64,000 nucleotides of DNA. Origin: Bremerella sp. P1. Lineage in GTDB: Bacteria > Planctomycetota > Planctomycetia > Pirellulales > Pirellulaceae. Positions 1,527-37,859 of the stretch are shown here, piece after piece. A model generated the notes under the pieces. It saw only the letters and a list, made by a program, of their open reading frames with translations, did no database searches and was not told the DNA's origin. Made by a program: the position numbers and the translations under genes. The stretch spans positions 2,232,001 to 2,296,000 of the forward strand of contig NZ_CP118164.1 of NCBI RefSeq assembly GCF_028748185.1, written 5' to 3'. The number at the start of each line of letters is the position of its first letter. Position 1 is the first letter of the stretch.

Positions 1527-1728
1527 CCGTGAACTGCTTGACTGACTGGTATGGCTTTACAGGGTCGGTAACTGTTTACTCTATCGCGGATCGAGCCTAC
1601 TGCCCACCACGATGGGTAAAAGTCGCGTCGTAAGCTAGAGCAGGGACTCGATTTGGAATAGACTAGGATCCGGCCTTTTGGGGCCGACCTTTTCGTACTG
1701 TCCTTCTGCGTTGAGAAAGTCATCCACG

Positions 1729-2418: not shown

Positions 2419-2484
2419 CGAGTCGCTAGGTCCATGTTGTTGCTCCTACGTTGAAACTCCCTCGAACCGATCAGGTGCCTTCCC

Positions 2485-3216
2485 ATGTCGATCGACTTTC
2501 CTTGCTCGAATTGCCATCAGACGGTTCGCGTGCCCGATGGCACCGAAGGTAAAAAGACCAAGTGCCCTAAATGCCAACAGGTCCAGGTCATTCCCGATAA
2601 GAACTCGTTCGGGTCATCCTCGGCACCGACGCCTCCTCCGGCACCCGAGCAGCCGGCCAAGGAAGAATCGATGTGGGATGACCTGATGCCAGAGCCGTCG
2701 TCTGCACCAGCGCCCGCTTCCAGCAATCCGTTCGGCGATGCTCCCGATCCGTTTGGGCCTCCGGCCGACAATCCCTATATGTCGCCGACTCAGTCCTCTT
2801 CGTCTTATCCACGTCGAGGTGCTTCGCGCGAAGAGGCTCGCTCGAAACTGATGGGTCCGGCGATCGGCGTTTTGGTATGTAACGTCCTGGGGCTGCTTCT
2901 GCTGGGTGTCTGGGCGATTGCCACGATCATCGAGCTTCAAAAAGGAAACGAGATCAACGATACGCCTGAGATCGTCGGAGCCAGCATCGCTCTGTTCATC
3001 ATGTTCGGCCTTCCGTTCCTGCTGAGTCTGTTGTGCATGGCGGCCATGGCCCGAGCGTTTGCCGTCCGCAATTATGGCCTGGTCATGACCGGATTCATCC
3101 TGGCCTTAACGCCCTTTGGCGGAGGCTGCGGCTGCTTGATCGGGATGCTCTTTGGTATCTGGGGTATCGTGATGATGAACGATGATTCCGTCAAAGCGGC
3201 CTTTCGTCTGCCGTAA
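2485..3216 (+). CDS. Zinc-ribbon membrane protein, paralogue 2 of 4
   Basis: A 243-residue protein with an N-terminal zinc ribbon (CSNC...CPKC, residues 7-31), a Pro/Ala/Ser-rich linker to about 115, and a membrane region starting near MGPAIGVLV with three to four helices. It ends with a conserved cytosolic tail (NDDSVKAAFRLP). The zinc ribbon and the tail are nearly identical to those of the next gene, so this pair is the youngest duplication in the array. The linker NPFGDAPDPFGPP is also shared. No enzymatic motif is seen; the function is unknown, and a sensory or scaffolding role is only a guess. Confidence 0.82.
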   Translation: MSIDFPCSNCHQTVRVPDGTEGKKTKCPKCQQVQVIPDKNSFGSSSAPTPPPAPEQPAKEESMWDDLMPEPSSAPAPASSNPFGDAPDPFGPPADNPYMSPTQSSSSYPRRGASREEARSKLMGPAIGVLVCNVLGLLLLGVWAIATIIELQKGNEINDTPEIVGASIALFIMFGLPFLLSLLCMAAMARAFAVRNYGLVMTGFILALTPFGGGCGCLIGMLFGIWGIVMMNDDSVKAAFRLP

Positions 3217-3271
3217 ATAGAAGCTCTCGAAACTGAAAAACGCGCTCCGCGTAGACGTGAAGTAAACGAAT

Positions 3272-4012
3272 ATGCCGATCGACTTTCCCTGCTCCAGTTG
3301 CCATCAGACGGTTCGCGTGCCTGATGGCACCGAAGGTAAAAAGACCAAGTGCCCCAAGTGCCAACACATCCAGGTCATTCCCAATAAAAGCGCGGCAGGT
3401 TCGTCCCCCACGCCAACGCCTCCTCCGGCTCCCCAGCAGCCGGCCAAGAAAGAATCGGTCTGGGATGACCTGACGTCGGAATCGACTCCAGCCGAGCCAC
3501 CTGCGTCGAGCAATCCGTTTGGCGATGCTCCCGATCCCTTTGGACCGCCGTCGGACAATCCCTATGTGTCGCCCCCTTCGTCGGCGTCTTCCTCTTCGTC
3601 TTACGCACCTCGACCGGCTTCCCGTGAGGACGCACGCTCGAAACTGATGGGCCCTGCAATTGGTATTCTGGTAACTAACGGGTTGGGTCTGCTCCTGATG
3701 TTACTGGGGATCCTCATCACGATTGTCGAAGTCGTAGACGGTGGCGGATTCAACGGGAACCAGAACGATGTCGAGGTCCTTATCGTGGCGGTGTTCCAAT
3801 TTGGCATACCGTTGCTGTTCACCATCCTGTCGATTACGGCGATGATCCGCGCGCTGGCTGTCCGCAACTATGCGTTGGTCATGACCGGTTTTATCCTATC
3901 GATAACGCCCTGCTCGGGCGGATTCTGCTGCCTGATCGGGATGGTCTTTGGCATCTGGGGAATTGTGGTCATGAACGACGATTCCGTGAAAGCAGCGTTT
4001 CGCCTACCGTAG
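3272..4012 (+). CDS. Zinc-ribbon membrane protein, paralogue 3 of 4
   Basis: A 246-residue protein, closest to the preceding gene: same zinc ribbon (CSSC...CPKC), same Pro-rich linker motif and the same 12-residue C-terminal tail. The transmembrane stretches differ more than the ends, especially the extracytoplasmic loop, which carries a Gly/Asn-rich insert (GGGFNGNQN). The 55-base gap from the previous gene contains no obvious terminator, so co-transcription is likely. The function is unknown. Confidence 0.82.
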   Translation: MPIDFPCSSCHQTVRVPDGTEGKKTKCPKCQHIQVIPNKSAAGSSPTPTPPPAPQQPAKKESVWDDLTSESTPAEPPASSNPFGDAPDPFGPPSDNPYVSPPSSASSSSSYAPRPASREDARSKLMGPAIGILVTNGLGLLLMLLGILITIVEVVDGGGFNGNQNDVEVLIVAVFQFGIPLLFTILSITAMIRALAVRNYALVMTGFILSITPCSGGFCCLIGMVFGIWGIVVMNDDSVKAAFRLP

Positions 4013-4044
4013 CTAAGCCGTTACCTATTTGAGAAAGTCTTGCG

Positions 4045-4755
4045 ATGCCGATCAGTTTTCATTGCGAAACCTGTCGGCGGTCTATCTGCGTTCCCGATGG
4101 TTCGGAAGGCAAAAAGACACGCTGTCCGAATTGCTATTCGATCGTCCGGATTCCCTTCAGCGGTAGCCCGAAGCTGTTGACGACCCCCGACGTACCCGAG
4201 GTCGCTCCACTGGAAGAAGAGGACCCACTGGGAATCACTGGTAAGACTGAATCTCGCTGGGATGCCCCGCCCCCGGACCAACCTTCCCCAAATCCTTTTG
4301 CCGAGCGGCCTGAACCGTCACCGGTCGAAAGTCCCCAGGCACCACTGCCAGGTCAGCCACGGGACACAACCCAAAAGCAAAAGATCCTGAAGGCCTTGGC
4401 GATCGCGTTGATGCTGCTGGGAGTGCCGTCGCTGGTTTTCGGCTTGCTGATGATTGGCGTTCGAGTTGTGGTGATCTTTGAATACCCAACCGATGATCCG
4501 CGAACGCTTGGTGCACTGGCAGGCCTGATCACGGTGTTTATCGTTCAAGTATTGACCCTTATTGCCTTGAACGAGGCACGCATCATGCGGAACTACATCA
4601 CCGCACGCACGGGAATGATCTTGGCCATAATCCCGTTCTCCTACCCGGCAGCTCTCTTGATCGTGCCGCTGGCGCTGGCGATTTGGGGGGTCGCAATTCT
4701 GTACGATCCCGACGTTCGTGCCGCCTTCGAAAGCGAACCCAAGCTAGACGCCTGA
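4045..4755 (+). CDS. Zinc-ribbon membrane protein, paralogue 4 of 4
   Basis: A 236-residue protein with the zinc ribbon CETC...CPNC at the N-terminus, an acidic/proline linker and hydrophobic segments from about residue 115. It is more diverged than copies 2 and 3; its C-terminal tail is VRAAFESEPKLDA. The 11 bases at the 5' side of its leader (TTGAGAAAGTC, about 4029-4039) recur upstream of paralogue 1 (1711-1721), so the duplication unit included the translation leader. The gap to the previous gene is 32 bases, consistent with one operon. Confidence 0.8.
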   Translation: MPISFHCETCRRSICVPDGSEGKKTRCPNCYSIVRIPFSGSPKLLTTPDVPEVAPLEEEDPLGITGKTESRWDAPPPDQPSPNPFAERPEPSPVESPQAPLPGQPRDTTQKQKILKALAIALMLLGVPSLVFGLLMIGVRVVVIFEYPTDDPRTLGALAGLITVFIVQVLTLIALNEARIMRNYITARTGMILAIIPFSYPAALLIVPLALAIWGVAILYDPDVRAAFESEPKLDA

Positions 4756-4849
4756 CTGACACGCCCCGCCGCGTGTGTTAAAACAAGCGTTCTTTATCGA
4801 ACTAACCCCCAAGCTTTGCCTGTCTTATTCTCTGAGGAGATTTGCCCCC

Positions 4850-6046
4850 ATGGCTACCAACGGTGATCTGAATCGTAAATTGCGAATGGCTTTGGTCGGT
4901 GGTGGTTCCGGCTCGTTCATCGGCCGTGTTCATGCCACTGCAGCCGTCCTCGATAACCGCGCCGCACTGGTCGCCGGGGCACTCAGCTCGAACCCCGAAC
5001 GAGCCAAAGCTTCCGCTGCCGATTACGACATCCCCGAAGATCGGGCCTACACCAGCTACCAAGAGATGCTGGATAAGGAAAACGCCCTGCCGGAAGACAA
5101 GCGGATCGACTTCGTCTCGGTCGCCACGCCGAACCACATGCACTTCCCCGTGGCCAAGGCCGCCCTGGAAGCCGGCTTCAACGTCATGTGCGACAAGCCA
5201 ATGACGCTGACTCTGGAAGAAGCCGAAGAGCTGTACGAAGTCGTGCAGAAGTCGGGTGCCGTCTTCGCTGTTACGCACAACTACACCGGCTACCCACTGA
5301 TTCGCCAGGCTCGCGAGATGATCCTTAATGGTGAGCTGGGCGAGATCAACGCGATCCGCGTGCAGTACATCCAAGGCTGGCTGCGAGAAAAGCTGGAAGA
5401 CACCGACCAGAAGCAAGCTGCCTGGCGTAGCGATCCGAAGAAGAGTGGTGCCGCCGGTGCTTACGGCGACATCGGTACCCACGCCTACAACCTGGGCCGC
5501 TACATGACCGGTCTGCTGCCAGACAAGGTCAGCACAAGCCTGGCTACCTTCGTTGAAGGTCGCACGCTTGACGACTACGGCACCACCATCATTCGCTACG
5601 AAAACGGTGCCCTCTGCACGCTGACCGCTTCGCAGATCAGCCATGGCCGCGAAAACGATCTGGCGATCGAAATCGACGGCACCAAGGCCGCCATCCAGTG
5701 GCGTCAGGAAAACCCGAACGAAATGATCTTCCGCCAGAACGGCGAACCTCACAAGATCTACACCCGCAGCCCTGGTGCTCCGTTCATGACCCCGATGGGT
5801 GATGCTGCCTGCCGTATTCCGGCCGGTCACCCCGAAGGGTTCTTCGAAGCGTTCGCGAACATCTATCGCGCCGCGTTCGATGCGATGGCCCTGCGTGCGT
5901 TGGGTAAGGACTTCGAGAAGAAGGACACCGTCTATCCAAATATCCACGACGGCGTCGAAGGGATGTACTTCATTCAGCAGTGCGTCGCCAGTAGCCAAGA
6001 AGACGGCGCCTGGTTGCCCCTGAAGCACGAAGTGGCTCGCCGTTAA
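4850..6046 (+). CDS. Gfo/Idh/MocA family oxidoreductase
   Basis: A 398-residue NAD(P)-dependent sugar or inositol dehydrogenase-like enzyme. The N-terminal Rossmann fold shows the glycine-rich GGGSGSFIGRVH, and CDKPMTLTLEEAEEL is the family's [ED]KP catalytic-lysine motif. The GDIGTHAYNL stretch carries the usual active-site Asp and His. The ATG at 4850 follows a good ribosome binding site (TGAGGAG, 4833-4839); the in-frame start at 4775 would add 25 non-family residues. The substrate cannot be read from sequence. A rho-independent terminator lies just downstream. Confidence 0.9.
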   Translation: MATNGDLNRKLRMALVGGGSGSFIGRVHATAAVLDNRAALVAGALSSNPERAKASAADYDIPEDRAYTSYQEMLDKENALPEDKRIDFVSVATPNHMHFPVAKAALEAGFNVMCDKPMTLTLEEAEELYEVVQKSGAVFAVTHNYTGYPLIRQAREMILNGELGEINAIRVQYIQGWLREKLEDTDQKQAAWRSDPKKSGAAGAYGDIGTHAYNLGRYMTGLLPDKVSTSLATFVEGRTLDDYGTTIIRYENGALCTLTASQISHGRENDLAIEIDGTKAAIQWRQENPNEMIFRQNGEPHKIYTRSPGAPFMTPMGDAACRIPAGHPEGFFEAFANIYRAAFDAMALRALGKDFEKKDTVYPNIHDGVEGMYFIQQCVASSQEDGAWLPLKHEVARR

Positions 6047-6068
6047 GCAGCTTCCGTGCCATCCACAC

Positions 6069-6102
6069 ACGCCGCTTCCTGACACAGGGAGCGGCGTTTT
6101 TT
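6069..6102 (+). terminator. Rho-independent terminator after the oxidoreductase
   Basis: A GC-rich hairpin (ACGCCGCTTCC paired with GGGAGCGGCGT) is followed by a T6 run, 23 bases after the stop codon at 6046. Confidence 0.8.
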
Positions 6103-6129
6103 AATAGACCTTTCCCTGGATGAAATGCC

Positions 6130-6519
6130 ATGAAAATCGAACACTTTGCCCTCCAGGTTGCCGACCCGATTGCTGTTGCTCGCTGGTATGTCGTTCACCT
6201 GGGGATGACCATCCAGAAGGGAAGCAGCCAACCGCCGTTTGCCCACTTCCTGGCCGATGACGGGGGACAGATGCTGATCGAGCTCTACTTCAACGATCAG
6301 TTCGACGTGCCGGATCAATCGCAGGTCCCGCCGGCTCATTTTCACCTGGCATTCGTGAGCGAAGACATCGAGAAAGATCGCAAGCGGCTCATCGAAGCCG
6401 GGGCCAAGGAAGAAGGCCCGATCGCCACGCAGCCTAACGGCGACCTGGTTTGCTTTCTGCGCGACCCTTGGGGCCTGACGCTGCAGCTGGTCTCGCGCGT
6501 GGAAAAGCTTTTAGCCTAA
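6130..6519 (+). CDS. VOC family (glyoxalase/bleomycin resistance-like) protein
   Basis: A 129-residue single-module vicinal-oxygen-chelate protein. It opens with KIEHFALQVADP, the usual first beta strand with a potential metal-binding His, and contains ARWYVVHLGM in the helix after strand 1. It closes with FLRDPWGLTLQLV, the common DP-x-G-x-x-[IL]-x-L ending. A further His lies at HFHLAFVSED. The enzymatic activity (glyoxalase, dioxygenase or antibiotic binding) cannot be decided. It stands alone between a terminator and the next gene. Confidence 0.85.
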   Translation: MKIEHFALQVADPIAVARWYVVHLGMTIQKGSSQPPFAHFLADDGGQMLIELYFNDQFDVPDQSQVPPAHFHLAFVSEDIEKDRKRLIEAGAKEEGPIATQPNGDLVCFLRDPWGLTLQLVSRVEKLLA

Positions 6520-6593
6520 GAGACGTTTGTTTCGGGGCGAGCAATCGCCGATAATCGGGAGCATCTTTCCTATTCCCCTTGGAGGTGCTCCCC

Positions 6594-7799
6594 ATGCGAT
6601 TGCTGCCCGCCTTGCTGACTGCCCTGCTTCTGCTTCCCTGCCCACTCTTGGCCGATGAGCTTTCGTTTGAGCCCGAAGAGCTGAACACCCAGCTGGGCGT
6701 CGGGTACGCCGTTCGCCTGCTCGATATGAACGGCGACGAGAAGCTCGACATCTGCATTGTCGATAAAGAGCGTCTGATCTGGCTAGAAAACCCCAGCTGG
6801 ACCGAGCACGAGATCCTGGGCCCTGGCCAAACCAACGCCGACAACGTGGCCTTTGCCCCGGCCGACATCAACGGCGATGGAAAGCTCGACTTCGCGGTGG
6901 CCGCTGGCTGGGGTGGCGGCAAGACGCAGCGCGGCACCATCCAGTGGATCACCTCCGCGGAAGCCAAGGGAGATCACTGGAACGTCCATCCGATCCGCAA
7001 CGAGCACAGCACGCATCGCATCCGCTTTGCCAATGTCATCGGCGATGAAAAGCCGGAATTGATTATCGGCCCTCTCTTCGGCCCCGGCACGACGGGACCT
7101 CACTTCGCAGAGAACGGCGTGCGTCTAATCGCGCTCGAGATTCCCAAGACCCCAACCACCGACGAGTGGCCGGTCCACATGATCGACAACTCGTTGCACG
7201 TGATGCACAACTTCCTGCCGATCGACTTCACCGGCAACGGTAAGACCGACATCATCTCGGCCAGCTACGAAGGCGTTCACCTTCACGAGCTTCAGGAGGA
7301 CGGCAGTTGGAAGAAGTCGCAGCTGGGCAGCGGCGATCAAGAGTCGAGCCCCAGCCGCGGTGCCAGCGAAGTGAAAGTCGGTCGCCTGGCCAATGGCGAT
7401 TGGTATATCGCCACCATTGAACCGTGGCACGGCAATCAGATTGTGGTCTACACCAAGCCAGAGGATCAGCCGCTGCGAAGCCTATGGACGCGTCACGTCC
7501 TGGACGACCAATTGAAGTGGGGACACGCCGTTTGGTGTGCCAATTTAGACGACGACGCCGACGAGGAACTGGTGATCGGGGTTCGCGACGATCAGACCGA
7601 TAGTACCCGCCGCGGACTGCGTATTTTCGACCCTCAGGATGCTAAGGGATCCCAATTCCAGCGAACGGTCATTGACCCCGGAGCGGTTGCCATCGAAGAT
7701 TTAGCCGTAGGGGACCTGAACGGGGATGGCAAAGCCGATATCGTGGCGGTCGGTCGGCAAACACACAACGCCAAGATCTACTGGAACAAAACTCAATAG
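6594..7799 (+). CDS. Secreted FG-GAP/VCBS repeat protein
   Basis: A 401-residue exported protein with a signal peptide (MRLLPALLTALLLLPCPLLA, cut near residue 20) and several FG-GAP/VCBS-type repeats with calcium-loop consensus D-x-[ND]-G-[DN]-G: DMNGDEKLD, DINGDGKLD, DFTGNGKTD and DLNGDGKAD. Such repeats fold as beta-propeller blades. Planctomycetes encode many of them and usually annotate them as surface or carbohydrate-associated proteins. The ATG at 6594 has a strong GGAGGT ribosome binding site at 6581. No catalytic domain is visible. Confidence 0.87.
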   Translation: MRLLPALLTALLLLPCPLLADELSFEPEELNTQLGVGYAVRLLDMNGDEKLDICIVDKERLIWLENPSWTEHEILGPGQTNADNVAFAPADINGDGKLDFAVAAGWGGGKTQRGTIQWITSAEAKGDHWNVHPIRNEHSTHRIRFANVIGDEKPELIIGPLFGPGTTGPHFAENGVRLIALEIPKTPTTDEWPVHMIDNSLHVMHNFLPIDFTGNGKTDIISASYEGVHLHELQEDGSWKKSQLGSGDQESSPSRGASEVKVGRLANGDWYIATIEPWHGNQIVVYTKPEDQPLRSLWTRHVLDDQLKWGHAVWCANLDDDADEELVIGVRDDQTDSTRRGLRIFDPQDAKGSQFQRTVIDPGAVAIEDLAVGDLNGDGKADIVAVGRQTHNAKIYWNKTQ

Positions 7800-7972
7800 C
7801 GATCGCTACATTTCTCAAACATTACCTATTTACCGGGTGGTTCCTACTATTTTTATCGCAAAATTTCAATATCGCTGGGTGAATGACGAACGGACCGTTA
7901 CACTGGATTTCACCTGCCAAACGCGAAATCTTATCTCCCCACATCATGAAGAACGAAATAGGAACAGGCCCG

Positions 7973-8980
7973 ATGAGTAAAGTTCGTTGGGGTGTGCTGA
8001 GCACCGCAAAGATCGGTACGGTCAAAGTCATCCCTGGGATGCAGAAAGGGCAATATTGCGAAGTGACCGGCATCGCCTCGCGCTCGCTGGAAAACGCCCA
8101 GGCAGCTGCTGACCAGCTCAATATTCCCAAAGCTTACGGTTCGTACGAAGCCCTGCTGGAAGACCCCGAAATCGACGCGGTCTATATCCCGCTGCCCAAC
8201 CACATGCATGTGCCCTGGGCCATCAAGGCCATACAGGCCGGCAAGCACGTGCTGTGCGAAAAGCCAATCGGACTGAGTGTCGAAGAAGCCCGGCATCTGG
8301 CCGACATCGCTTACCAACACCCGAACCTGAAGGTGATGGAAGCGTTCATGTTTCGCCATCACCCGCAGTGGCAGAAGGCCCGCCAGATTGTCCGCGAAGG
8401 GGGTATCGGTACGCCGGTCACCATCCAGTGCTTCTTCTCGTACTTCAACAACAACCCATCCGACATCCGCAACAATCCTGACTGGGGTGGCGGCGGCATC
8501 ATGGACATCGGCTGCTACCCGATCTCGCTGTCGCGGTTCATCCTCGAAGGCGAACCGGAAAAGGTCATCGCTTCGGTGACGCGCGACGAAGAGTTCAAGA
8601 CCGACGTCGTGTCGTCGGTGATGATCGACTTCGGCGGGCTGATGAGCACGTTTACCTGCGGCACAAAGATCGTCCCCTACCAGCGGGTCAACATCTTCGG
8701 CACCGAAGGCCGCGTTGAGATCCAGATTCCCTTCAACGCTCCACCAGACGAGCCGTGCATCTTGTGGCATCAGCAAGGGGAAGAGATCACCGAGATCCAA
8801 CTGCCGGTGGCCGATCAATACACGATCCAAGGCGACCTCATGTCGCAGGCCATCCTGGAAGACACCGACGTCCCCACGCCTATCTCCGATGCGGTCGCCA
8901 ACATGGAAGTCATCGAAGCCGTCTTCCGCAGCGAACGCTCCGGCCGCTGGGAATCGGTCAATCACATGGTGGCCAAGTAG
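7973..8980 (+). CDS. Gfo/Idh/MocA family oxidoreductase
   Basis: A 335-residue NAD(P)-dependent dehydrogenase-like protein, with Rossmann segment WGVLSTAKIGTVKVIPG, the catalytic-lysine motif CEKPIGLSVEEA and MDIGCYPISLSRF for the later active-site Asp/Tyr region. The overall pattern (YIPLPNHMH, FMFRHHPQW) resembles the glucose-fructose oxidoreductase/trans-dihydrobenzenediol dehydrogenase branch. The start at 7973 matches the family; upstream in-frame ATGs at 7946 and 7883 are possible but would precede the Rossmann fold with unrelated residues. It is distinct from the oxidoreductase at 4850 and not a recent duplicate. Confidence 0.9.
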   Translation: MSKVRWGVLSTAKIGTVKVIPGMQKGQYCEVTGIASRSLENAQAAADQLNIPKAYGSYEALLEDPEIDAVYIPLPNHMHVPWAIKAIQAGKHVLCEKPIGLSVEEARHLADIAYQHPNLKVMEAFMFRHHPQWQKARQIVREGGIGTPVTIQCFFSYFNNNPSDIRNNPDWGGGGIMDIGCYPISLSRFILEGEPEKVIASVTRDEEFKTDVVSSVMIDFGGLMSTFTCGTKIVPYQRVNIFGTEGRVEIQIPFNAPPDEPCILWHQQGEEITEIQLPVADQYTIQGDLMSQAILEDTDVPTPISDAVANMEVIEAVFRSERSGRWESVNHMVAK

Positions 8981-9337
8981 GAAACGATCTCCATCGCCCG
9001 CTTTCGCCTTCGCAGGCTGAGGGGCTGATAAGCGATGCGATCAAAGCACATGAAAGCCCTGGAAGAACAACCTTCCAGGGCTTTTGTCACTTCTTGTTCA
9101 TCGGTTGCGGGGCTCACACAGCTCGCGTGATTCACTTAGACACTTAGGCCTGGTCTTGGGATCCAAGCCTACTGTTTTTCACGGAAGTGATTGCAGTGAT
9201 CACGGCGTGCCTCGCGATGCCGATCATTCCCTCGGGGGGGGATCACCCCAGTATCATAGCCATCGCACCACCCAGCTGTTACGGTGAGAGATATGTGCTG
9301 CTTACTCTTTTCTGTCGATTCGCAAAAGCCGAGCTGA
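8981..9337. other. Intergenic stretch with a terminator
   Basis: This gap of 357 bases holds the terminator at 9053-9085 and no credible open frame. Nothing else is recognised. The G-rich run at about 9235-9241 has no obvious role. Confidence 0.6.
9053..9085 (+). terminator. Rho-independent terminator
   Basis: A perfect 13-base stem (AAAGCCCTGGAAG with CTTCCAGGGCTTT) around a six-base loop. It is near symmetric, with A-rich and T-rich flanks, so it may work in both directions. Confidence 0.8.
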
Positions 9338-10249
9338 ATGGAAGCCGATCACGACGAAGCATTCTCCTCGACCGCGATCCATGCGGGCGATGATGCTTCC
9401 GCCGATTCCTACGATCTCGAAGCAACCAAATGGTTGGTTCCGGCAGCCTTGGTTTTGTTTGCCATGCTGCTGTTGGAGATCGTCGTGCTTCTCGCCTGGC
9501 GAACTCCCAGCGACATCGGCATCTTCCTTCGCTTCGGCCAGGCAGGCATCGTCGGCTTCTACTTGGCTTGCGGCTGGGCGAAGTGGTGGGTTCGCTGGTT
9601 GGTCGCCGCTGGCTCGGTGCTGGGCCTTTCCGTAACCATGCTGCAGCCCCAAGATCCGGTTTCTTATGTCATGTTTGGCGTGCTGATCGTGATCTCGGCT
9701 GGGTTCACGTTTCTGGTCCGCATGATCGTCGCCGTCATTCGTGGCGAGTCGAGCCCCACACAGCGCTTCACCATCTTCGGTCTGATGCTCGTGACCGGCG
9801 TCGTGGCCGTTTGTACGGTTGCGTTGAACCAGCTTCCGGAATTCCAGGATACCGCGCGGGGGAGTTCCATCATCCTGATGATGGCTTGTTTCGGGTTGTG
9901 CTTGATCGCCCAGTGCTCTCCCCTGTGGACTACCAACCCGCGTCAGGCCATCGCCTTTGCCGCCAGTGCCATATCGCTGGCACTTGTGATGCCGTTTGGC
10001 ATCGTCGGCGTTATCTACGTGTTACAAGATCAAATGCCAGAAATGTGGAACGTCGTGACGGCGTGCTGGGGCATGGCCTTCACCACCTGGGTTACGCTCT
10101 ATCCGCTTGTCTTTGTCTTCTACGGGATGGGCGGGGCGCTGGTCGATCCGAGTTGGAAACTCAAGCCACGTCACGAGAGGTCCCTCAAGCCTGCTCGTGT
10201 CCAACCGGAATTCGATGTCCTGATGGGCGATGATGGCGATGGAACCTGA
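9338..10249 (+). CDS. Polytopic membrane protein, first of a paralogous pair
   Basis: A 303-residue protein of unknown function with about seven hydrophobic segments after a roughly 30-residue acidic N-terminus. It shares with the next gene the motifs FYLACG, WW-x-RWL, VISAGFTF, RGESS, QRFTI and PSWKL-x-PRH at corresponding positions, so the two are paralogues. The stop at 10247-10249 lies inside the 5' end of the next gene. No transporter or enzyme signature is recognised. Confidence 0.75.
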   Translation: MEADHDEAFSSTAIHAGDDASADSYDLEATKWLVPAALVLFAMLLLEIVVLLAWRTPSDIGIFLRFGQAGIVGFYLACGWAKWWVRWLVAAGSVLGLSVTMLQPQDPVSYVMFGVLIVISAGFTFLVRMIVAVIRGESSPTQRFTIFGLMLVTGVVAVCTVALNQLPEFQDTARGSSIILMMACFGLCLIAQCSPLWTTNPRQAIAFAASAISLALVMPFGIVGVIYVLQDQMPEMWNVVTACWGMAFTTWVTLYPLVFVFYGMGGALVDPSWKLKPRHERSLKPARVQPEFDVLMGDDGDGT

Positions 10250-11120
10250 TGCCGCTGAAGTGATCGAAGACGTGGGTTCGCCACCAGAACCCAAGCCTGT
10301 AACGACTGGGGGCTTGCGAATTGCGGGTGTGCTCGCGCTGCTTGTCTGGGCGATATCGATCCTGATTTGCCTCTTCAGTTCCATGCGATTTACATTCGAA
10401 ATCGGCATGTTTCTCATCTATAGCCTCACCGCGTTTACGGGGTTCTACCTGGCTTGTGGCAATGCCCGGTGGTGGGCGCGTTGGCTGCTGGCCAGCTTGA
10501 GCATCTTGCTTATCGCTTCAAGCCATTACAGCCATGACATGCTGGAAGGGATTTCCTATCACGGCGTGTTCATCGTGATCTCGGCTGGATTCACATTCGC
10601 GGGCCGCATGATCCTTTCGGCCTTTCGCGGCGAGTCGAGCGCTCGTCAGCGATTCACAATTCTCGGCTTGATGGTCGTCACGGCAATCACCGCCGTATGC
10701 CTGCTGGCGATCAATTACTTGTTCTTATCCAATGGAGCAACGGACGTGGCTGTGGCCATTGCTATTCTGACCGTGCTCGGTTTTGCGATGACCGCCCAAT
10801 GCACTCCCGCCTGGACGAACACGAAATGGGAAGCGTTTGTCTTTGCGGCAACTGGCTTCCTGATCGCGATTCCGTCCTCACTGATCATTTACGGCATCCT
10901 GGCTTTCTCCGAAAACACAACACAGTTGGTCGAGGAGGTGATGTATCCGGTATGGATGATTTTCCTCTTGCTGTGGCTGATCCTCTACCCGCTTTGGTTC
11001 AGCTTCTACGCGTTAGGCTGGAAGCTGATCCATCCCAGTTGGAAGCTTGGACCGCGTCATGCCATGAAGTCCGCGGTCCGCATGAAAGAGAAAGAAGTCG
11101 ACGTCCTGATGGAAGATTGA
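10230..11120 (+). CDS. Polytopic membrane protein, second of a paralogous pair
   Basis: A 296-residue paralogue of the preceding protein, with the same seven-segment hydrophobic layout and shared motifs. Three in-frame ATGs lie at 10230, 10233 and 10239, all upstream of the preceding stop, so the genes overlap by 11 to 20 bases and are probably translationally coupled. Both proteins end in a similar acidic tail (V-D-V-L-M-E-D here; F-D-V-L-M-G-D-D there), so the overlap lies in duplicated sequence. The function is unknown. Confidence 0.75.
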   Translation: MMAMEPDAAEVIEDVGSPPEPKPVTTGGLRIAGVLALLVWAISILICLFSSMRFTFEIGMFLIYSLTAFTGFYLACGNARWWARWLLASLSILLIASSHYSHDMLEGISYHGVFIVISAGFTFAGRMILSAFRGESSARQRFTILGLMVVTAITAVCLLAINYLFLSNGATDVAVAIAILTVLGFAMTAQCTPAWTNTKWEAFVFAATGFLIAIPSSLIIYGILAFSENTTQLVEEVMYPVWMIFLLLWLILYPLWFSFYALGWKLIHPSWKLGPRHAMKSAVRMKEKEVDVLMED

Positions 11121-11138
11121 TCGCCGATCACCGGCGGC

Positions 11139-11648
11139 TTATTCTTCTTCGTCGTCGTACTCGACATGGCGATCGCGCCAGTACGTTTCGTTGGCCAGCA
11201 CCTGTTCAATGACCGCTGGCTGATCGAGCGCCGCTGCCTGGGGCACAAGCTTGAGCTCGTGATCGGCATAGACGCCCTGCACTTCAAACTCTTCGGCATC
11301 GACCGGAATCGCCCACCCATCGAAGTAGACATACTGCTGGCCTTCCTCCAAGTCCTCGGTCATTTGCTTCATGAGTTCAATCCAAAGCTCAACGTCCTCA
11401 TCGGTCGGCGGCTCGCTGTAGCGGGTATCGAGGTCCAGGTGCGCCAGCTCCTCCCAGGTCAGATCACAAGGCGCGGCAACCGCGAAGGTATAGGCATGCC
11501 GGCACTTGGGACAAGCGAAGAGCCACCCGCAGCCACACCAGGGGCAATCCATTTGGGCCGGCGCCGAGATCCAGCACGGCTCGCACTTGCAGTGAGAAAC
11601 TAAATCGTCGTTGGCCTTCTTCAGGAACAGTCCGACCTTTTCACTCAT
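11139..11648 (-). CDS. Hypothetical zinc-finger-like acidic protein
   Basis: A 169-residue protein, not recognised as a named family. The first 50 residues hold clustered cysteines (CKCEPC, CPWCGCGW, ACPKC) that could bind one or two zinc ions. The rest is acidic (many Asp/Glu) and ends in YDDEEE. It converges with the membrane protein ending at 11120, with only 18 bases between stops. There is no signal peptide, so it is probably cytosolic. Confidence 0.65.
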   Translation of the reverse strand: MSEKVGLFLKKANDDLVSHCKCEPCWISAPAQMDCPWCGCGWLFACPKCRHAYTFAVAAPCDLTWEELAHLDLDTRYSEPPTDEDVELWIELMKQMTEDLEEGQQYVYFDGWAIPVDAEEFEVQGVYADHELKLVPQAAALDQPAVIEQVLANETYWRDRHVEYDDEEE

Positions 11649-11939
11649 CGATCGATCCTTGCTTCACAGGGCGTAACTCACCAGGGCAATTCATCGCCAA
11701 GCGGCGCATACCTGAGATGCCGTTCGGTGTACCCTACCCAGTCGCCGACAGCAAGCATTTGCTGCTTCCCAGAAAAATGAAGAACGATTTCTGCGGAAAT
11801 TCGTCGAACTAAATAGAGAGAACGATCAATCCTTTGTGAAAGTCTTTTCCCACTCGGTTTTCGCATTCCCTTCCCCCCGACAGGTATGCATAATCGGAAG
11901 ATAGATTCGCTCTGGCCCGCTTTCCTTCATTGCCTTCTT

Positions 11940-13430
11940 ATGTCTCGAATGATTCGAACACTTACGATTGCCTTCGTTGTTTTGCTGCTTCCCACGCGAC
12001 TGGCCTTTGCCCAGATGAGCGCCTCGCCGTGGATGCTCGCCTCCGACATCACCATCCCTGCGGACGAGGACGCCCAGATCACCATGGGGCCTTCCGGTTG
12101 CCCGGTGATCGTGGTCAACCGCGAGGCCTGGCACATCAAATCGAAGAAGGTGGTGCAGACGATCCCCGAAGGGACTGAGATCGGTGAATACCGCTGCTTG
12201 AGCGCCAACGGCAAGTACTTCGCCGCATTCGCAGGCCGCCGTTTCGATCGTGGGAAACCAGTCAACGTCTGGAACCTGGTCACCGGCGAGATCGTCGCCA
12301 CGGTGCCTGGCAAGTCGGATACGACCTACCAGGTGATGAAGATCATGTACAACCGCTACTTGTTGGTGGCTCCGTACGATGGCAAGACATTGACGATTTG
12401 GGATCTTGAGGAAAACAAGAAGACCCGTGATGTCTTCGTCCGAGCCGAACGCATCGAAGAAGGTCAGCTGACCGTTTCGCCGGATGGTAAGTACCTGGCA
12501 CTGTGCGAAGGAGACAAGGTCTCGGTCATGACGCTGGCCGATGGTCGCTACGTGGGCAACATGGCTGCTCCGCTGAGCGATCTGGAAAGCCGTTCCAGTT
12601 GGACGCTCCGTGCTCGCGATGTCGAAGACCTCGAGTTCTCGCCCGATGGCCAGGAGATGGCGGCGGTCTACGGCACGTTCAGCAGGCAGCGCCTGGTGGT
12701 CTGGAACAGCAAGGGACAGATCATCCAAGACATCCTCTTGAACGTCCCTTATGGCCGCTTGAATGCGTACAGCTTGTCGTGGCTACCGGATCAAAGAGGC
12801 TGGATCGTCGACGGCAACGTCATCGATCGCGAAACCAAACGGATCACCGTTCAGTTCAAACGTCCGCGTAACGACAACGACGAGATCACGGTGCTCGACA
12901 AATATTTCCTGATGGGACGCTTCGGCGAAGAGGCCGAAACGATCACCATGATCGGCCTTCCCTGGGAAGAAGTCGCCCGGTCGCTGGAGGCGATGAATTC
13001 CGTCGACAACGTGATCATCGGCCCAGGTGCCAAGCTTTCGCTGTATGTCTACATGCGAGGCCAACGCAGCCCGTCGGTCGACAAAGCCCGGGCAGCCATC
13101 GGCGACGCGATCGTGGCCCGCCTGAAAGCGGACAAGATGCTTTACGCTGCAGACCAAGACGCCTACTTCCGCTTCAACGCCGAGCCTGCTTCGCCAGAGC
13201 ATCAATACGGCCAGTTGAAGCTGGAACTTCTCATGAAGGGCTCCGACGAGCCGATCTGGTCGCACACGTTCTCATCGTCGACAGCCACCGGCTTCCTGCA
13301 AGGCTTGGATAAACAAGAGATCTCGGACGCATCCGCCACACAAGTCGCCGCCGAAATCAAACGCCTCCAGATCCCCTACTTCATCCCCCGCACCGCCGAC
13401 TTCCTACCGCTGCCGTTTGTGGTGCAGTAG
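11940..13430 (+). CDS. Exported WD40/beta-propeller-like protein
   Basis: A 496-residue exported protein. The ATG at 11940 gives a clear signal peptide (MSRMIRTLTIAF...RLAFA), which the in-frame start at 11886 would bury behind 18 residues. The middle (about residues 30-300) has WD40-like strands such as NVWNLVTGEIVATVPG, LTIWDLE and LEFSPDGQEMAAVYG. The C-terminal third lacks such repeats and has no recognised domain. The function is unknown. Its 3' end borders the accessory patch that carries the epmA repeat copies. Confidence 0.75.
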   Translation: MSRMIRTLTIAFVVLLLPTRLAFAQMSASPWMLASDITIPADEDAQITMGPSGCPVIVVNREAWHIKSKKVVQTIPEGTEIGEYRCLSANGKYFAAFAGRRFDRGKPVNVWNLVTGEIVATVPGKSDTTYQVMKIMYNRYLLVAPYDGKTLTIWDLEENKKTRDVFVRAERIEEGQLTVSPDGKYLALCEGDKVSVMTLADGRYVGNMAAPLSDLESRSSWTLRARDVEDLEFSPDGQEMAAVYGTFSRQRLVVWNSKGQIIQDILLNVPYGRLNAYSLSWLPDQRGWIVDGNVIDRETKRITVQFKRPRNDNDEITVLDKYFLMGRFGEEAETITMIGLPWEEVARSLEAMNSVDNVIIGPGAKLSLYVYMRGQRSPSVDKARAAIGDAIVARLKADKMLYAADQDAYFRFNAEPASPEHQYGQLKLELLMKGSDEPIWSHTFSSSTATGFLQGLDKQEISDASATQVAAEIKRLQIPYFIPRTADFLPLPFVVQ

Positions 13431-13453
13431 GCCAGCGCGTTCAAGCCTGACGA

Positions 13454-13474
13454 GTCGGAAACGGGATCACCTCG
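13454..13474 (-). repeat. Distal partial copy of the epmA 3' end
   Basis: Twenty-one bases identical to 15477-15497 within epmA and close to 14416-14436 in the second copy. Read on the minus strand in the epmA frame it encodes E-V-I-P-F-P-T-R followed by Q-A-stop, where epmA has L-A-stop. Similarity ends on both sides. It marks the outer border of the accessory patch. Confidence 0.6.
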
Positions 13475-13560
13475 CAAGGGGCATCCAGTCCACAGCCAGT
13501 TTCCGGCCGTTCTTCGTGAATGGCTAATTATCAACCTAGAATGACCGTCCTGCGGAGCAA

Positions 13561-14343
13561 GTGCTGATGCTGCCGGAAGACAACGCGTTTCTTTTTGGCG
13601 TGTTAAAACTTGCCAAAGCAACGCCCAACTCTCAGGGTCGCCATACGTTCGGTGGGAACACTCCATTTCGTGGCGCGACACGAGAGGATTGTGATGGCCT
13701 CTTAGTACATCATTTGTATTCTCTTGATTTAGCCGATCCTGCGTTACCGTTCAGTCCACCGGGATTGAAGTCGTTACCGTTGCTCTACTGCTTTGATTTT
13801 CGCGCAAACACGATTGGGTATCGCTTTTCAACTGACGATTCGCTTCAGTTTTTCTTCGATCGATCAGATCCGAATCTATCTTCCGAGGAAGAATGGCCAT
13901 ACGAAGACTATCCTGAGCGATTCCCAAGAGTCCCCATGAGTATCACCCCAGTACCCTACAATCCGCAGGATCCTGAAGATGTTTACGCTTGGGCCGGCAT
14001 TTTTGGCATGGATCACATTTCAAAAGAAGGTGAAGAACTTCTTCAAAAGAAAGCTCACGAATCGGCTCGGCTTTGGCAACAGGATGCTCCGCAGACCAGA
14101 GAAGAACTATCCGATTACCTTGACATGCCATTCTCCCAAGGACGCCCCACTTCGCGATGTATGAACCCCTTGTGCGAATACTCTCAGCAAGATCGTCGCA
14201 ACCAACTTCGGACCATCGCGATTGTTCCCAATTGTCCTACAAAGGAAACTTACTTATTCGGCAAATATGAAGATGACGTGATTCTGATTTTCCAAATGTG
14301 CGAAAAGTGTCAGACCATTCGCGTTTCCAATCAGTGCACGTAG
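13561..14343 (+). CDS. Hypothetical protein in the epmA-linked accessory patch
   Basis: A 260-residue protein (GTG at 13561; the ATG at 13567 is equally possible and better spaced from GGAG at about 13554). It contains aromatic-rich stretches (YCFDFRANTIGYRFS, LQFFFDRSD). A C-terminal cysteine set (CMNPLC, then C, then CEKC) may be a zinc ribbon. Base composition is clearly more AT-rich than the neighbouring core genes. It lies between two copies of the epmA 3' end and so may be a captured cassette gene. No family is recognised with confidence. Confidence 0.6.
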   Translation: MLMLPEDNAFLFGVLKLAKATPNSQGRHTFGGNTPFRGATREDCDGLLVHHLYSLDLADPALPFSPPGLKSLPLLYCFDFRANTIGYRFSTDDSLQFFFDRSDPNLSSEEEWPYEDYPERFPRVPMSITPVPYNPQDPEDVYAWAGIFGMDHISKEGEELLQKKAHESARLWQQDAPQTREELSDYLDMPFSQGRPTSRCMNPLCEYSQQDRRNQLRTIAIVPNCPTKETYLFGKYEDDVILIFQMCEKCQTIRVSNQCT

Positions 14344-14406
14344 TATCCTCGTGTGCAATCCCTTCTGGGGCTTTGGTTTCATGAGGAAAGAACTTGATGA
14401 GATCAC

Positions 14407-14487
14407 GCCAACCGCGTCGGAAATGGAATCACCTCGTCTATCGACTTCGCTCCGATCGCCGCCATCACCAGGCGATCCAATCCCAAC
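14407..14487 (-). repeat. Second copy of the epmA 3' end (81 bp direct repeat)
   Basis: This segment matches 15468-15548 with six mismatches in 81 bases. On the minus strand it encodes the same last 27 residues of EpmA (from LGLDRL to TRLA) and its own stop codon. All six differences are synonymous third-position changes. With the genuine epmA end it brackets the ankyrin lipoprotein gene. Confidence 0.85.
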
Positions 14488-14489
14488 AA

Positions 14490-15434
14490 CTATTTGTTTT
14501 CATCGGAAAAACTAGCCGCTCGCTCTTGGTAACCGAGTGTGTCTTTATGGCTTTCTACTTCCGGATGATTCTTGATCCAACGATTCCATCTCTGGTGATC
14601 CGATCGTACGTTGGCGACAGAGATTCCATGATCGGTTAACCAGTTTTCAATTTGCTCAAAATCGGACTGTTGCTGGGTAGTCCAACTCTTCGGGTTTATA
14701 TTTTCGCTTTCGACGAAGACATCGACAAAATTAAGCAGACTCGGCTGTTGGCGTACCATAGGGTCCGCTCCGTTTTGCAGCAAGAACAACGCGATCCCAT
14801 ATTGCCCTCCCCAGCCTGCGGCACGCATCAGTGGCGTATCCCCTGATCGACCGCGTCCATTAATATCAGCCCCAGCATCGAGCAGCATACGAATCCTCTG
14901 CTTTTTTGACGGAGCATGCGAAATAACGAGACAGAGTGGGGTATCGCCATTCGCATTTGTCAGATTGGGATCTCCATCATGCGTAAGGACAGCACCGAGA
15001 AAGCCATCCTGTGATGCCTTCGTCGCCAGATGAATGATTTCATCGCCAGGCTTAATGACATTGGTACCAAAACGACTCTGAAATGTGAGATTCGGATTGG
15101 TACCCTTCTGCAGCAACATCTCAAAACATTCTAAATTGTTGCGGGCAAATGCCCACAGCAGCAGTGTCATACCGTCCTTGCCAATTGCATTAACATCAGC
15201 ACCTGCCTCAGCCAAACGTTTTATCTTGCTTGGATTGTTGGAGTCGATTGAGTCGCATAACTCGATAACTTGCTCGTCATGGAAGAAATCGTTTGCTCGC
15301 CAGCCATTCGCCCCAGGAAATGCAGCGGACTTGGGTGGATGAGGATAACACCCCAAAGCCATGACGATGCAAAGCAAAAACCCTAAACCTACAACAGGCA
15401 AGACATTCATAGGATTGAGCATGGCATAAGTCAC
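14490..15434 (-). CDS. Ankyrin-repeat lipoprotein
   Basis: A 314-residue protein with an N-terminal hydrophobic stretch ending in a lipobox (MALGC), so it is probably lipid-anchored. It contains four or so ankyrin repeats (about residues 65-230), shown by IKRLAEAGADVNAIGKDG, LLQKGTNPNL, NANGDTPLCLV and LLDAGADINGRGRSGDTPL. Ankyrin repeats mediate protein-protein contacts. The exact start is unclear: ATGs at 15434, 15422 and 15410 all keep the signal sequence. The gene is AT-rich compared with the core genes and is flanked on both sides by 81-bp copies of the epmA 3' end, which suggests acquisition as a unit of about 1 kb. Confidence 0.8.
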   Translation of the reverse strand: MTYAMLNPMNVLPVVGLGFLLCIVMALGCYPHPPKSAAFPGANGWRANDFFHDEQVIELCDSIDSNNPSKIKRLAEAGADVNAIGKDGMTLLLWAFARNNLECFEMLLQKGTNPNLTFQSRFGTNVIKPGDEIIHLATKASQDGFLGAVLTHDGDPNLTNANGDTPLCLVISHAPSKKQRIRMLLDAGADINGRGRSGDTPLMRAAGWGGQYGIALFLLQNGADPMVRQQPSLLNFVDVFVESENINPKSWTTQQQSDFEQIENWLTDHGISVANVRSDHQRWNRWIKNHPEVESHKDTLGYQERAASFSDENK

Positions 15435-15463
15435 TTCGGAAAAAAGGGCACGGGATCATTTCC

Positions 15464-16447
15464 CTAAGCCAACCGCGTCGGAAACGGGATCACCTCGTCG
15501 ATCGACTTCGCTCCGATCGCCGCCATTACCAGACGATCCAAACCCAACGCACAGCCGCTACACGCTGGCAGGCCGTCGCGCATCGCTTCGATTAGCTGGC
15601 TCTCTTCTGGCAAAGCGGGCTTGCCGAGTGACTCACGAGCCGCGTTGCTGGTTCGGTTTCTCTCCACCAAAATCTCGGCGTCGAGCAGTTCGTCGTAGCC
15701 GTTGGCCAGTTCCATCCCATCGACAAACAGTTCAAAGCGGCAAGCTACCCGCGGGTCAGCTTCATCCAGCCGGGCCAGCGCTGCCTGCGAGGCCGGGTAG
15801 TGATACAGGATCACCGGCCGATCGAAGCCGAGCTTCGGCTGAATCAGTTCCGATAGCAGCAGTTCCAACAGGCCGTCGATGTCATCATCCGAGAACGACT
15901 CCGGCACGCTGACGTTGTGCGTTTCGGCTATCGCTTTAAGCTGCTGCGTCGTTGTGGCCAGCGGGTCGATGCCCAGATGCGTCTGAAAGAGCTGGGCGTA
16001 GCTGATGGTTTCGGCTGGGCCTCGCTGCAAAGCGGCCTCGGCCAAATCGGATAGTAGCTGCATGCCGGCCTGCAGGTCGTCGCCGACTCGGTACCATTCA
16101 ATCAGCGTGAACTCGACATTGTGCTGCAAGCCAGCCTCGGCCAGGCGAAAGGCCTTGGTGATCTGAAAGATGGCATCCGCCCCAGCCGCCACCAGCCGCT
16201 TCATGGCGAACTCAGGCGACGTCTGCAGGTAGTATCGCTCGCCTTCGCTCGGCTTAGCCGGATTCCAGGAGAGCGGCACCGGCACGGGATCGAGATGCGT
16301 GTCGACGACCGTGTCCCGAGAAAGTAGCGGCGTCTCAACTTCCCAGAACCCGAGAGCCAGGAAGAAGGCCCGCACAGTTTGGGTGATCTCGTGACGGCGT
16401 TTCAAGTTGTCGATCGACGCGGTAGGACGCCAGGAGTGATTGGGCAT
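15464..16447 (-). CDS. epmA: EF-P lysine lysyltransferase (EpmA/PoxA/GenX)
   Basis: A 327-residue truncated class II lysyl-tRNA synthetase paralogue that attaches (R)-beta-lysine to elongation factor P. It lacks the anticodon-binding domain, as expected for the family. Class II motif 2 is FRLAEAGLQHNVEFTLIEWY, and motif 3 is the glycine-rich GCALGLDRLVMA near the C-terminus. The last 27 residues (through TRLA) are duplicated downstream at 14407-14487 and partly at 13454-13474. epmB and efp are not in the window. Confidence 0.9.
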   Translation of the reverse strand: MPNHSWRPTASIDNLKRRHEITQTVRAFFLALGFWEVETPLLSRDTVVDTHLDPVPVPLSWNPAKPSEGERYYLQTSPEFAMKRLVAAGADAIFQITKAFRLAEAGLQHNVEFTLIEWYRVGDDLQAGMQLLSDLAEAALQRGPAETISYAQLFQTHLGIDPLATTTQQLKAIAETHNVSVPESFSDDDIDGLLELLLSELIQPKLGFDRPVILYHYPASQAALARLDEADPRVACRFELFVDGMELANGYDELLDAEILVERNRTSNAARESLGKPALPEESQLIEAMRDGLPACSGCALGLDRLVMAAIGAKSIDEVIPFPTRLA

Positions 16448-23506: not shown

Positions 23507-24286
23507 TTATTCACCAGCTAGCGGTGGAGGATGAAGGTTGAGGAGCATGTACATGGCATGGATCAGAAGTTTGGCTTGAACCCACTCGCGGACGCGGTGT
23601 ATTCGTCGAGCCCAGTTGGGTAGTGGTTCGAGGCCTCCGGCGTGATTGCCAAGCCAGGCGAATCTTCGTTCGACCTGGTTCCGGAACCGTATTAGGGCGC
23701 GACCGAACTCCTGCTCTAGTAGGGCGAAACAGCGAATTCGTCCTGGGCTGTGGCGGCAATGCCCCAAGCCTTTTCCTGGTCGCAGTTTTTCGGCCACCAG
23801 TTGATAACCGGCTTCCATCGCCGCGTCGTGGAGCTGGTTGCTGTCGTATCCACGATCAGCCACTAGATAGCCTCCGCCTCTCCCTAGGATCGGGAGAAGC
23901 CGAACTGCAACCGGCGTTTCGGCCACGTTGAGCGGTTCGACATCCCAGGCCAGCGGCATGCTGCTCGAGCCGTAGATCGCGTGGACCTTGTAGCCCTTGC
24001 CGTAGCCGCGTCGTGCGCGGCCCCAACGGGCATCGGGATCCTTGCTGCAATGACTCACCATTTGCGGCTTGCCATCAACGAGCATGACAAAACCGAAATC
24101 GTCCACCGCGATCATGCACCGTTCCATTTGAGCGAGCAGTGCCTGAACTTCCGTGGTTGGCAAGCGTCGGCTCATCGTCGGTTGAGACGGTAATTTCCGA
24201 GGCCTGAGATCGTCAGGCCAGTTGCCCGGCTCGCATGCCCAGCAGGTTGGTCGATCGTGAATAACCGCCCACAAGTAGACGCTCAC
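23507..24286 (-). CDS. DDE transposase, main (3') reading frame
   Basis: A 259-codon frame with the hallmarks of an IS4/IS5-type DDE transposase: IAVDDFGFVMLVDG around the first Asp, VADRGYDSNQLHDA around the second Asp, and RNQVERRFAWLGN with the Glu of the Y-x2-R-x3-E-like region. Its apparent N-terminus VYLWAVIHDRPTCWAC is not the protein start; the family begins with the MERELWIALYK segment found in another frame (24213-24383). A +1 shift near the A6 run at 24300-24305 would join them into about 292 residues. Its stop is within six bases of the left terminal repeat. Confidence 0.85.
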   Translation of the reverse strand: MSVYLWAVIHDRPTCWACEPGNWPDDLRPRKLPSQPTMSRRLPTTEVQALLAQMERCMIAVDDFGFVMLVDGKPQMVSHCSKDPDARWGRARRGYGKGYKVHAIYGSSSMPLAWDVEPLNVAETPVAVRLLPILGRGGGYLVADRGYDSNQLHDAAMEAGYQLVAEKLRPGKGLGHCRHSPGRIRCFALLEQEFGRALIRFRNQVERRFAWLGNHAGGLEPLPNWARRIHRVREWVQAKLLIHAMYMLLNLHPPPLAGE

Positions 24287-37576: not shown

Positions 37577-37859
37577 TTTCAATCTTTCCCCCAGAAACTT
37601 TCTGAAAACAAGTAGGCCTAAAGGGTGTCTCACCCGACACCTCTTCAACAGTAGGTTATTCATCAGCTTTAACTGGCAAAGTTCGATTTTAACGGCTGCG
37701 ATGACCAGGATAAATTAGGTTCTTGTGTATTTTGGGCAAAATATATAATCGCTATACACATCCAACCTGAGGGAGGGGCAGATTCGCAAGTTGCGGGGTG
37801 TTATTAACAATGCATACGAATTGTCCCTCGCTCGTCTGCCCGATTGAGGATCTTCAACG

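What the first reader, a model, noticed from the sequence alone, without database searches (positions are those of the whole stretch)
13454..15548. epmA 3' end repeated downstream, bracketing two AT-rich genes
The last 81 bases of epmA (15468-15548) recur at 14407-14487 with six mismatches, all synonymous, and a 21-base core recurs exactly at 13454-13474. Each copy keeps an in-frame stop. The two intervals each hold one gene of lower GC (13561-14343 and the ankyrin lipoprotein 14490-15434). Purely synonymous drift indicates the second copy was once the working 3' end of an epmA gene, which is what elements leave when they integrate into the end of a gene and replace it. No recombinase is present, so these would be passive cassettes or remnants.
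Basis: partly seen in the sequence, partly recalled or inferred. Interest (0 to 1): 0.8.

Follow-up and report, generated by a model that had tools for sequence, protein, structure and literature searches.

The report
Foreign genes stacked behind epmA tails
In this planctomycete, two single foreign genes appear to have been added one after the other behind a housekeeping gene, each arriving with a relative's version of that gene's last stretch and pushing the old stretch downstream, so the locus keeps a readable record of how DNA from relatives may be added without any visible mobile element.

Summary
The repeats are real. The last 85 nt of epmA (15464-15548) recur at 14403-14487; the shared 81 nt differ at six sites, all synonymous. 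A third copy (34 nt) lies at 13441-13474. Each keeps an in-frame stop. In 5 of 8 congeners epmA lies directly next to the WD40 gene: the empty site. Copy 3 sits at that place, keeps the genus' usual QA* ending and is closest to G104 and G090, so it is the native epmA end. Copies 1 and 2 end in LA*, seen in none of the 8 congeners, so they came in. Two insertions are readable in order: orf13561, then the ankyrin gene. A nearby gene in congener G105 shows the same anatomy. No recombinase (25 ORFs scanned), attC or phage match was found, and the duplicated tails differ in length. Best explanation: DNA of relatives, holding a gene's 3' end plus the gene behind it, entered by recombination in that 3' end (single crossover of a circularised fragment, or homology-facilitated illegitimate recombination). 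This resembles the sequential displacement proposed for T6SS/Rhs loci, but at a housekeeping gene. The integrase reading is not supported. Donor and machinery are inferred.

The parts
11886..13430 (+). WD40-repeat protein gene, conserved left neighbour of the empty site
   Evidence: Pfam beta-propeller matches, all below their cut-offs; next to epmA in 5 of 8 congeners
13441..13474 (-). Copy 3: native epmA 3' end (EVIPFPTRQA*), left at the original place 10 bp from the WD40 stop
   Evidence: 3 of 33 nt different from G104 and from G090, 6 and 7 from copies 1 and 2
13475..13560 (.). Junction J1 and non-coding leader before orf13561
   Evidence: epmA homology stops at 13474/13475
13561..14343 (+). 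First insert: 260-aa protein with Cys motifs, no Pfam family; several relatives elsewhere lie beside attC sites
14403..14487 (-). Copy 2: displaced epmA 3' end (LGLDRLVMAAIGAKSIDEVIPFPTRLA*, stop TGA)
14488..14489 (.). Junction J2: 2 nt between copy 2 and the ankyrin stop codon
14490..15434 (-). Second insert: ankyrin-repeat protein with a lipoprotein-like N-terminus (lipobox recognised by eye)
   Evidence: Pfam Ank_2 2.5e-19; matches at E<=1e-22 in 18 of 240 family genomes, own included
15464..15548 (-). Copy 1: working 3' end of epmA (same peptide as copy 2, stop TAG)
15464..16447 (-). epmA (EF-P--(R)-beta-lysine ligase)
   Evidence: NCBIfam TIGR00462, 347.1 bits, cut-off 286.9

Best explanation
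The locus is a two-step accretion of single foreign genes by recombination anchored in the 3' end of epmA. Ancestral order: WD40 gene, about 10 bp, end of epmA (QA*). Event A: DNA from a relative carrying an epmA 3' end (LA*, TGA) and orf13561 joined at the epmA end, so epmA took the incoming end and the native end stayed downstream as copy 3. Event B: a second incoming piece (LA*, TAG, plus the ankyrin gene) did the same, leaving event A's end as copy 2. Most likely each piece was a chromosomal fragment that was end-joined into a circle and entered by one crossover in the shared 3' end; the alternative is a homologous crossover on one side and an illegitimate join on the other. Shown here: the copies, the empty site, the polarity of copy 3, the synonymous-only differences, and a second case at another gene in the genus. 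Inferred: that the donors are congeners, circularisation versus one-sided illegitimate joining, and natural transformation as the entry route.
For: Empty site in 5 of 8 congeners, 16-198 bp between the two stop codons; none of the 8 congeners has a convincing second epmA end within the 16 kb fetched (best E 0.029). Copy 3 is in native position, reads QA* as 6 of 8 congeners do (the others KA*, RA*; none LA*), and differs from G104 and from G090 at 3 of 33 nt against 6 and 7 from copies 1 and 2. Copies 1 and 2 differ by synonymous changes only and are 12-29 differences of 85 from the congeners' ends, the congeners 14-31 from each other, so an origin within the genus is plausible. Second case: in G105 the homologue of window gene 11139-11648 has its 3' end duplicated (84 nt at 95.2%; one synonymous difference in the 75 nt up to and including the stop) around one 114-aa ORF whose stop lies 2 nt from the junction, as the ankyrin stop does here. 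That ORF has a match in 1 of 240 family genomes, G105 itself. Published experiment: among 60 selected E. coli recombinants from a conjugated plasmid that was cut in the cell and shared one gene end with the chromosome, 56 showed a partial duplication of that gene end (109-950 bp in the 14 sequenced), read by its authors as a single crossover with a circular molecule that had lost part of the homologous end (PMC3240628, passages). A one-sided mechanism was proposed for displaced T6SS and Rhs 3' ends (PMC5361080, passages). All 9 genus genomes hold a Pfam Competence (ComEC-type) domain.
Against: No donor with epmA-LA* followed by either gene was found; only nine genomes of the genus are held. 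Event A's duplicated end is 34 nt, short for RecA-type pairing (recalled), so copy 3 may have been trimmed or the join may have been illegitimate. In both the G105 case and event B the insert's stop lies 2 nt from the junction, a neatness that random fragment ends do not predict. A comparison of epmA in 82-nt steps showed no sharp mosaic edge at the 3' end. Classical HFIR usually deletes recipient DNA (PMC3240628, passages), and none is evidently missing here. The competence domain also rings in 10 of 14 control genomes, so it is weak support. The phenomenon is rare: two clear cases in about 1.7 Mb scanned in three genomes plus other loci.
Confidence: 0.6

Rival explanations
1. Remnants of integrative elements: a tyrosine recombinase inserted small elements at an attB in the 3' end of epmA, each carrying a replacement end, and the integrase is missing or acted in trans.
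For: The anatomy (intact gene with a slightly different end, old end on the far side) is what such elements leave, as recalled from phage biology. An orf13561 relative (46% identity) lies at the same site in G090, so the site is used more than once.
Against: The duplicated ends differ in length (34 and 85 nt), so no common core is evident; another gene shows the same anatomy in G105, which one att site would not explain; the DNA between copies is only 928, 976 and 356 bp and holds one gene each; no integrase domain in 25 of 56 window ORFs scanned; no viral or phage match.
Confidence: 0.15
2. Integron integrase put the genes there as cassettes at secondary sites.
For: attC sites lie just behind orf13561 relatives in G019, G011, G055 and G009 and behind a distant relative in G104, where an intI remnant lies just upstream; the left boundary of copy 2 is GTT, the first bases of the recalled core site GTTRRRY.
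Against: No attC in window 13000-16000 (best 4.5 bits, unfiltered; matches listed in other loci score 20.8-91.4); in the own genome one attC scored E<=0.01, about 3 Mb away, though only 150 of 3444 first-look candidates were scored; 6 of 12 loci with orf13561 relatives given to one search also lack attC, so absence is not unusual; J1 lacks GTT; an intI over the family cut-off in 1 of 9 genus genomes, not this one; cassette insertion as recalled does not duplicate 85 nt of the target gene.
Confidence: 0.07
3. Duplication in place (target-site duplication or local tandem duplication of the epmA end) followed by gene insertion and drift.
For: The G105 pair is nearly identical, as a fresh duplication would be.
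Against: Copies 1 and 2 differ only synonymously (P 0.000125 if all changes were neutral; a model in which only one copy drifts freely would be less extreme), and copy 3, not the working end, has the ancestral QA* ending.
Confidence: 0.1
4. Assembly artefact.
For: Repeats are where assemblies fail.
Against: The own genome is one contig of 6,955,728 bases, and the copies differ from each other.
Confidence: 0.01

Closest known systems
Sequential displacement arrays at T6SS effector and Rhs/CDI loci (proposed mechanism akin to HFIR; PMC5361080, passages read)
   Same: An incoming gene 3' end with its following gene lands by homology in the conserved part of a gene; the old following gene, and sometimes the old 3' end, is pushed downstream, in tandem.
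   Different: There the displaced ends are variable toxin/effector parts with immunity genes. Here the end is a conserved housekeeping end coding nearly the same peptide, so the recipient protein hardly changes (QA* to LA*).
Single crossover of re-circularised DNA, and HFIR (PMC3240628, passages read)
   Same: Partial duplication of the homologous gene end around inserted DNA, no recombinase.
   Different: Experimental duplications were 109-950 bp; here 34 and 85 nt, repeated at one locus in nature. Classical HFIR usually deletes recipient DNA.
Minimal mobile element (Neisseria; definition recalled, only a search listing seen)
   Same: Different whole genes, or none, between two conserved genes in different genomes, without a recombinase.
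   Different: As recalled, minimal mobile elements swap content by recombination in both flanks; here content is added and the flanking gene's end is duplicated.
Integron gene cassettes
   Same: Several relatives of orf13561 lie beside attC sites elsewhere.
   Different: No attC, attI or integrase found at this locus.

Membership tests
Sequential displacement by anchored recombination | Working gene carries an incoming 3' end; older ends lie downstream, each with its own cargo gene | tested here: met
Sequential displacement by anchored recombination | Empty or simpler arrangements in relatives | tested here: met
   of 8 congeners: 5 empty, one with a single gene, two with other neighbours
Sequential displacement by anchored recombination | Identifiable donor with the same end plus cargo | tested here: inconclusive
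   G090 has an orf13561 relative at the site, but with QA* and 46% identity; no LA* donor among nine genus genomes
HFIR | Homologous join on one side, short microhomology on the other, usually a deletion | tested here: inconclusive
   no recipient DNA evidently missing at the WD40 side; donor side unknown, so microhomology cannot be scored
Integrative element at a gene 3' end | Integrase gene and constant att core | tested here: not met
   25 of 56 window ORFs scanned: one DDE transposase about 8 kb away, no integrase; boundaries at 34 and 85 nt
Integron cassette insertion | attC behind the gene and G/TT crossover | tested here: not met
   best attC score 4.5 bits; GTT at J2 but not J1
Minimal mobile element | Conserved flanks with variable whole-gene content among genomes | tested here: met
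   (species of one genus, not strains)
Minimal mobile element | Exchange by recombination in both flanks, no duplication (recalled) | tested here: not met
   epmA end duplicated twice

The most novel reading that the evidence does not exclude
Gene ends act as recombinase-free landing sites in this genus: units made of a gene's last 80-odd bases plus one cargo gene ending at the unit's edge move between relatives as cassettes, insert behind any matching gene, keep that gene whole and stack in tandem, newest next to the gene.
Probability: 0.12. Interest if true: 0.7.

Novelty: new variant of a known kind. Interest (0 to 1): 0.42.

Why it matters
Many single-gene islands in bacterial genomes show no sign of how they arrived. 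Here the displaced ends of the flanking gene give order and polarity for two arrivals without a visible recombinase. If such tails are found more widely, scanning for duplicated gene ends would be a simple way to measure recombinase-free gene gain in natural genomes, which in the papers seen here rests on laboratory assays and toxin loci. It would also suggest DNA exchange among planctomycete relatives.

Tried and rejected
Viral or plasmid origin: the back-translated epmA end pattern and relatives of both genes gave nothing in viral contigs; 13430-15560 gave no match in phages; orf13561 gave none in plasmids. The ankyrin gene was not searched in plasmids.

General genomic habit: gene 3'-end duplication within 6-8 kb was sought in 685 own ORFs, 312 G105 ORFs, 306 G104 ORFs and 599 ORFs of 52 other loci, the G105 epmA locus among them. 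Own: three ORFs hit (epmA, a tandem-array gene, a 21-nt match). G105: two (the case reported; a dispersed intergenic repeat). G104: three (a paralogous pair; two ORFs in a minisatellite). Other loci: eleven ORFs hit, one being the G105 case again; the other ten I took for paralogues or integron-array repeats from the repeat lists without inspecting each (those in L130 and L183 not at all). Nine loci with ankyrin relatives gave two hits, read as tandem paralogues. The matching test on 5' ends gave hits in 7 own, 4 G105 and 6 G104 ORFs, most looking like gene families or dispersed repeats, not examined one by one. So it is rare, not a habit.

A decayed epmA remnant beside orf13561's relative in G090: best P 0.0045 against the G104 end, 0.03-0.21 against three other references. 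Suggestive only, not used.

epmA elsewhere: 114 epmA loci with at least 300 bp downstream were tested with their last 150 nt (downstream length varied up to 8 kb); besides the window's own, eight gave weak matches of 17-66 nt at E 1.5e-5 to 1e-3, not followed up. The exact-pattern count matched in 6 of 241 family genomes and three times only in the own genome; outside the genus it matched once, so it tells nothing there.

Structure of orf13561: single-sequence model at mean pLDDT 34.6, useless; the family's profile against PDB and its 15 members against Pfam gave nothing below E 0.1.

Literature: searches (the last two found no paper). No paper on gene-end duplication at a housekeeping gene or in planctomycetes was seen in those listings of at most 15 each; subscription journals are largely not held.
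Full report
WHAT IS THERE. On the minus strand the order is epmA (16447-15464), the ankyrin gene (15434-14490), a second epmA end (14487-14403), then orf13561 on the opposite strand (13561-14343), a third epmA end (13474-13441) and, 10 bp on, the end of the WD40 gene. Copies 1 and 2 encode the same 27 residues, LGLDRLVMAAIGAKSIDEVIPFPTRLA, and then stop; copy 3 encodes EVIPFPTRQA and stops. Stops are TAG, TGA and TGA. Copies 1 and 2 differ at seven of 81 coding nt, all synonymous; a neutral simulation gives 0.000125. No further copy was found in the own genome.

THE EMPTY SITE AND POLARITY. The genus has nine genomes in the library. In five of the eight others (G104, G043, G105, G103, G102) the WD40 and epmA stops are 62, 42, 198, 16 and 17 bp apart. 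G090 has an orf13561 relative (46% identity) between them. G100 and G101 have other genes downstream of epmA. None of the eight shows a convincing second epmA end within the 16 kb fetched (best E 0.029). Six of the eight end epmA in QA*, one in KA*, one in RA*, none in LA*. Copy 3, with QA*, differs at 3 of 33 nt from G104 and from G090, at 6 from copy 1 and 7 from copy 2. So copy 3 is best read as the native end and the working end of epmA as the newcomer. This speaks against a simple local tandem duplication and gives the order of events: the ankyrin insert is newer, because it lies between epmA and the older displaced end.

A SECOND CASE. A scan of long ORFs' last 150 nt against the DNA downstream was run on 685 own, 312 G105, 306 G104 and 599 other ORFs. 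The one clear further case is in G105: the homologue of window gene 11139-11648 has its 3' end repeated (84 nt, 95.2%; the 75 nt up to and including the stop differ once, synonymously), around a 114-aa membrane-protein-like ORF (judged by eye). The ORF's stop lies 2 nt from the junction, as the ankyrin stop does. That ORF has a match in 1 of 240 family genomes, G105 itself. The target gene differs from epmA, so a mechanism tied to one att site is unlikely.

WHAT THE INSERTS ARE. The 260-aa product of orf13561 has no Pfam, NCBIfam, PHROG or PADLOC family and conserved cysteines. Matches occur in 22 of 240 family genomes, own included. A covariance model built from the attC-like repeats of a G055 array was run on 12 loci holding relatives: six carry attC (L171, L175, L177, L178, L184, L185), in five of them just behind the gene (G019, G011, G055, G009 and, for a distant relative at 24.7% identity, G104), and six have none (L126, L170, L172, L173, L174, L176); four further loci were not given to it. 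At the window locus the best score is 4.5 bits. So the family travels at least partly as integron cassettes elsewhere, but not visibly here. The ankyrin protein has matches at E<=1e-22 in 18 of 240 family genomes, own included.

HOW IT MOST LIKELY WORKS. A fragment of a relative's chromosome, holding an epmA 3' end and the gene behind it, joins the recipient by homology in that end. If the fragment first closes into a circle, one crossover gives exactly this product: gene body, incoming end, cargo, old end. In E. coli, 56 of 60 selected recombinants from a conjugated, cut plasmid with homology to one gene end carried such a partial duplication (PMC3240628, passages). The alternative, a homologous join on one side and an illegitimate one on the other, was proposed for tandem T6SS immunity arrays and orphan Rhs ends (PMC5361080, passages), but usually deletes recipient DNA, which is not evident here. 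The 34-nt length of copy 3 is short for RecA pairing (recalled) and may be a trimmed remnant. Natural transformation is an inference; all nine genomes have a ComEC-type domain, but so do 10 of 14 control genomes.

WHY NOT THE ALTERNATIVES. Integrative element: boundaries differ, two target genes, no integrase domain in 25 of 56 window ORFs scanned, no phage or viral match. Integron: no attC at the locus, GTT at one junction only, no integron integrase over the cut-off in this genome. Duplication in place: contradicted by synonymous-only divergence and by copy 3's ancestry.

NOVELTY. The logic (new end in, old end displaced) is known from toxin loci. What seems new, as far as the listings show, is finding it twice at a housekeeping gene and once at a nearby gene in a congener, with cargo of no evident link to the gene. 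I rate it a new variant of a known kind.

Noticed in passing
L197 7212-7487, L198 7814-7966 (own genome, C1 about 5.443 and 6.767 Mb); L178, L200-L206, L209-L212 in congeners: Sixteen pieces of an integron integrase gene's 3' end are scattered in 8 of 9 genus genomes (three weaker ones in L207, L208, L213 not counted); in all 16 a mechanically picked ORF follows in the same orientation. Several share a left flank with a short hairpin and end in an attI-like ...GTTA, suggesting dispersed single-cassette integron relics.
   Followed up: partly
L200 6140-6478 and 7803-8140; L203 7741-7913 and 8894-9066: Repeats of the intI 3' end plus attI-like DNA around one or two genes, formally like the epmA case but with intI as the anchor.
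   Followed up: partly
L199 8192-9259 (G043): The only integron integrase over the TIGR02249 cut-off in nine genus genomes, beside a gene I take by eye for agmatine deiminase; G104 has a remnant with a distant orf13561 relative at what looks like the matching place.
   Followed up: no
L177 (G055), 1-14001: A cassette array with 23 attC matches, one cassette being an orf13561 relative.
   Followed up: partly
window 36158-37367: Dense 84-nt repeats inside a long ORF on the minus strand, 35963-37663.
   Followed up: no
window 23510-24286: DDE transposase, the only mobile-element gene seen among 25 ORFs scanned.
   Followed up: no
window 1717-4012: Array of related genes with CxxC motifs (by eye) in direct repeat.
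   Followed up: no
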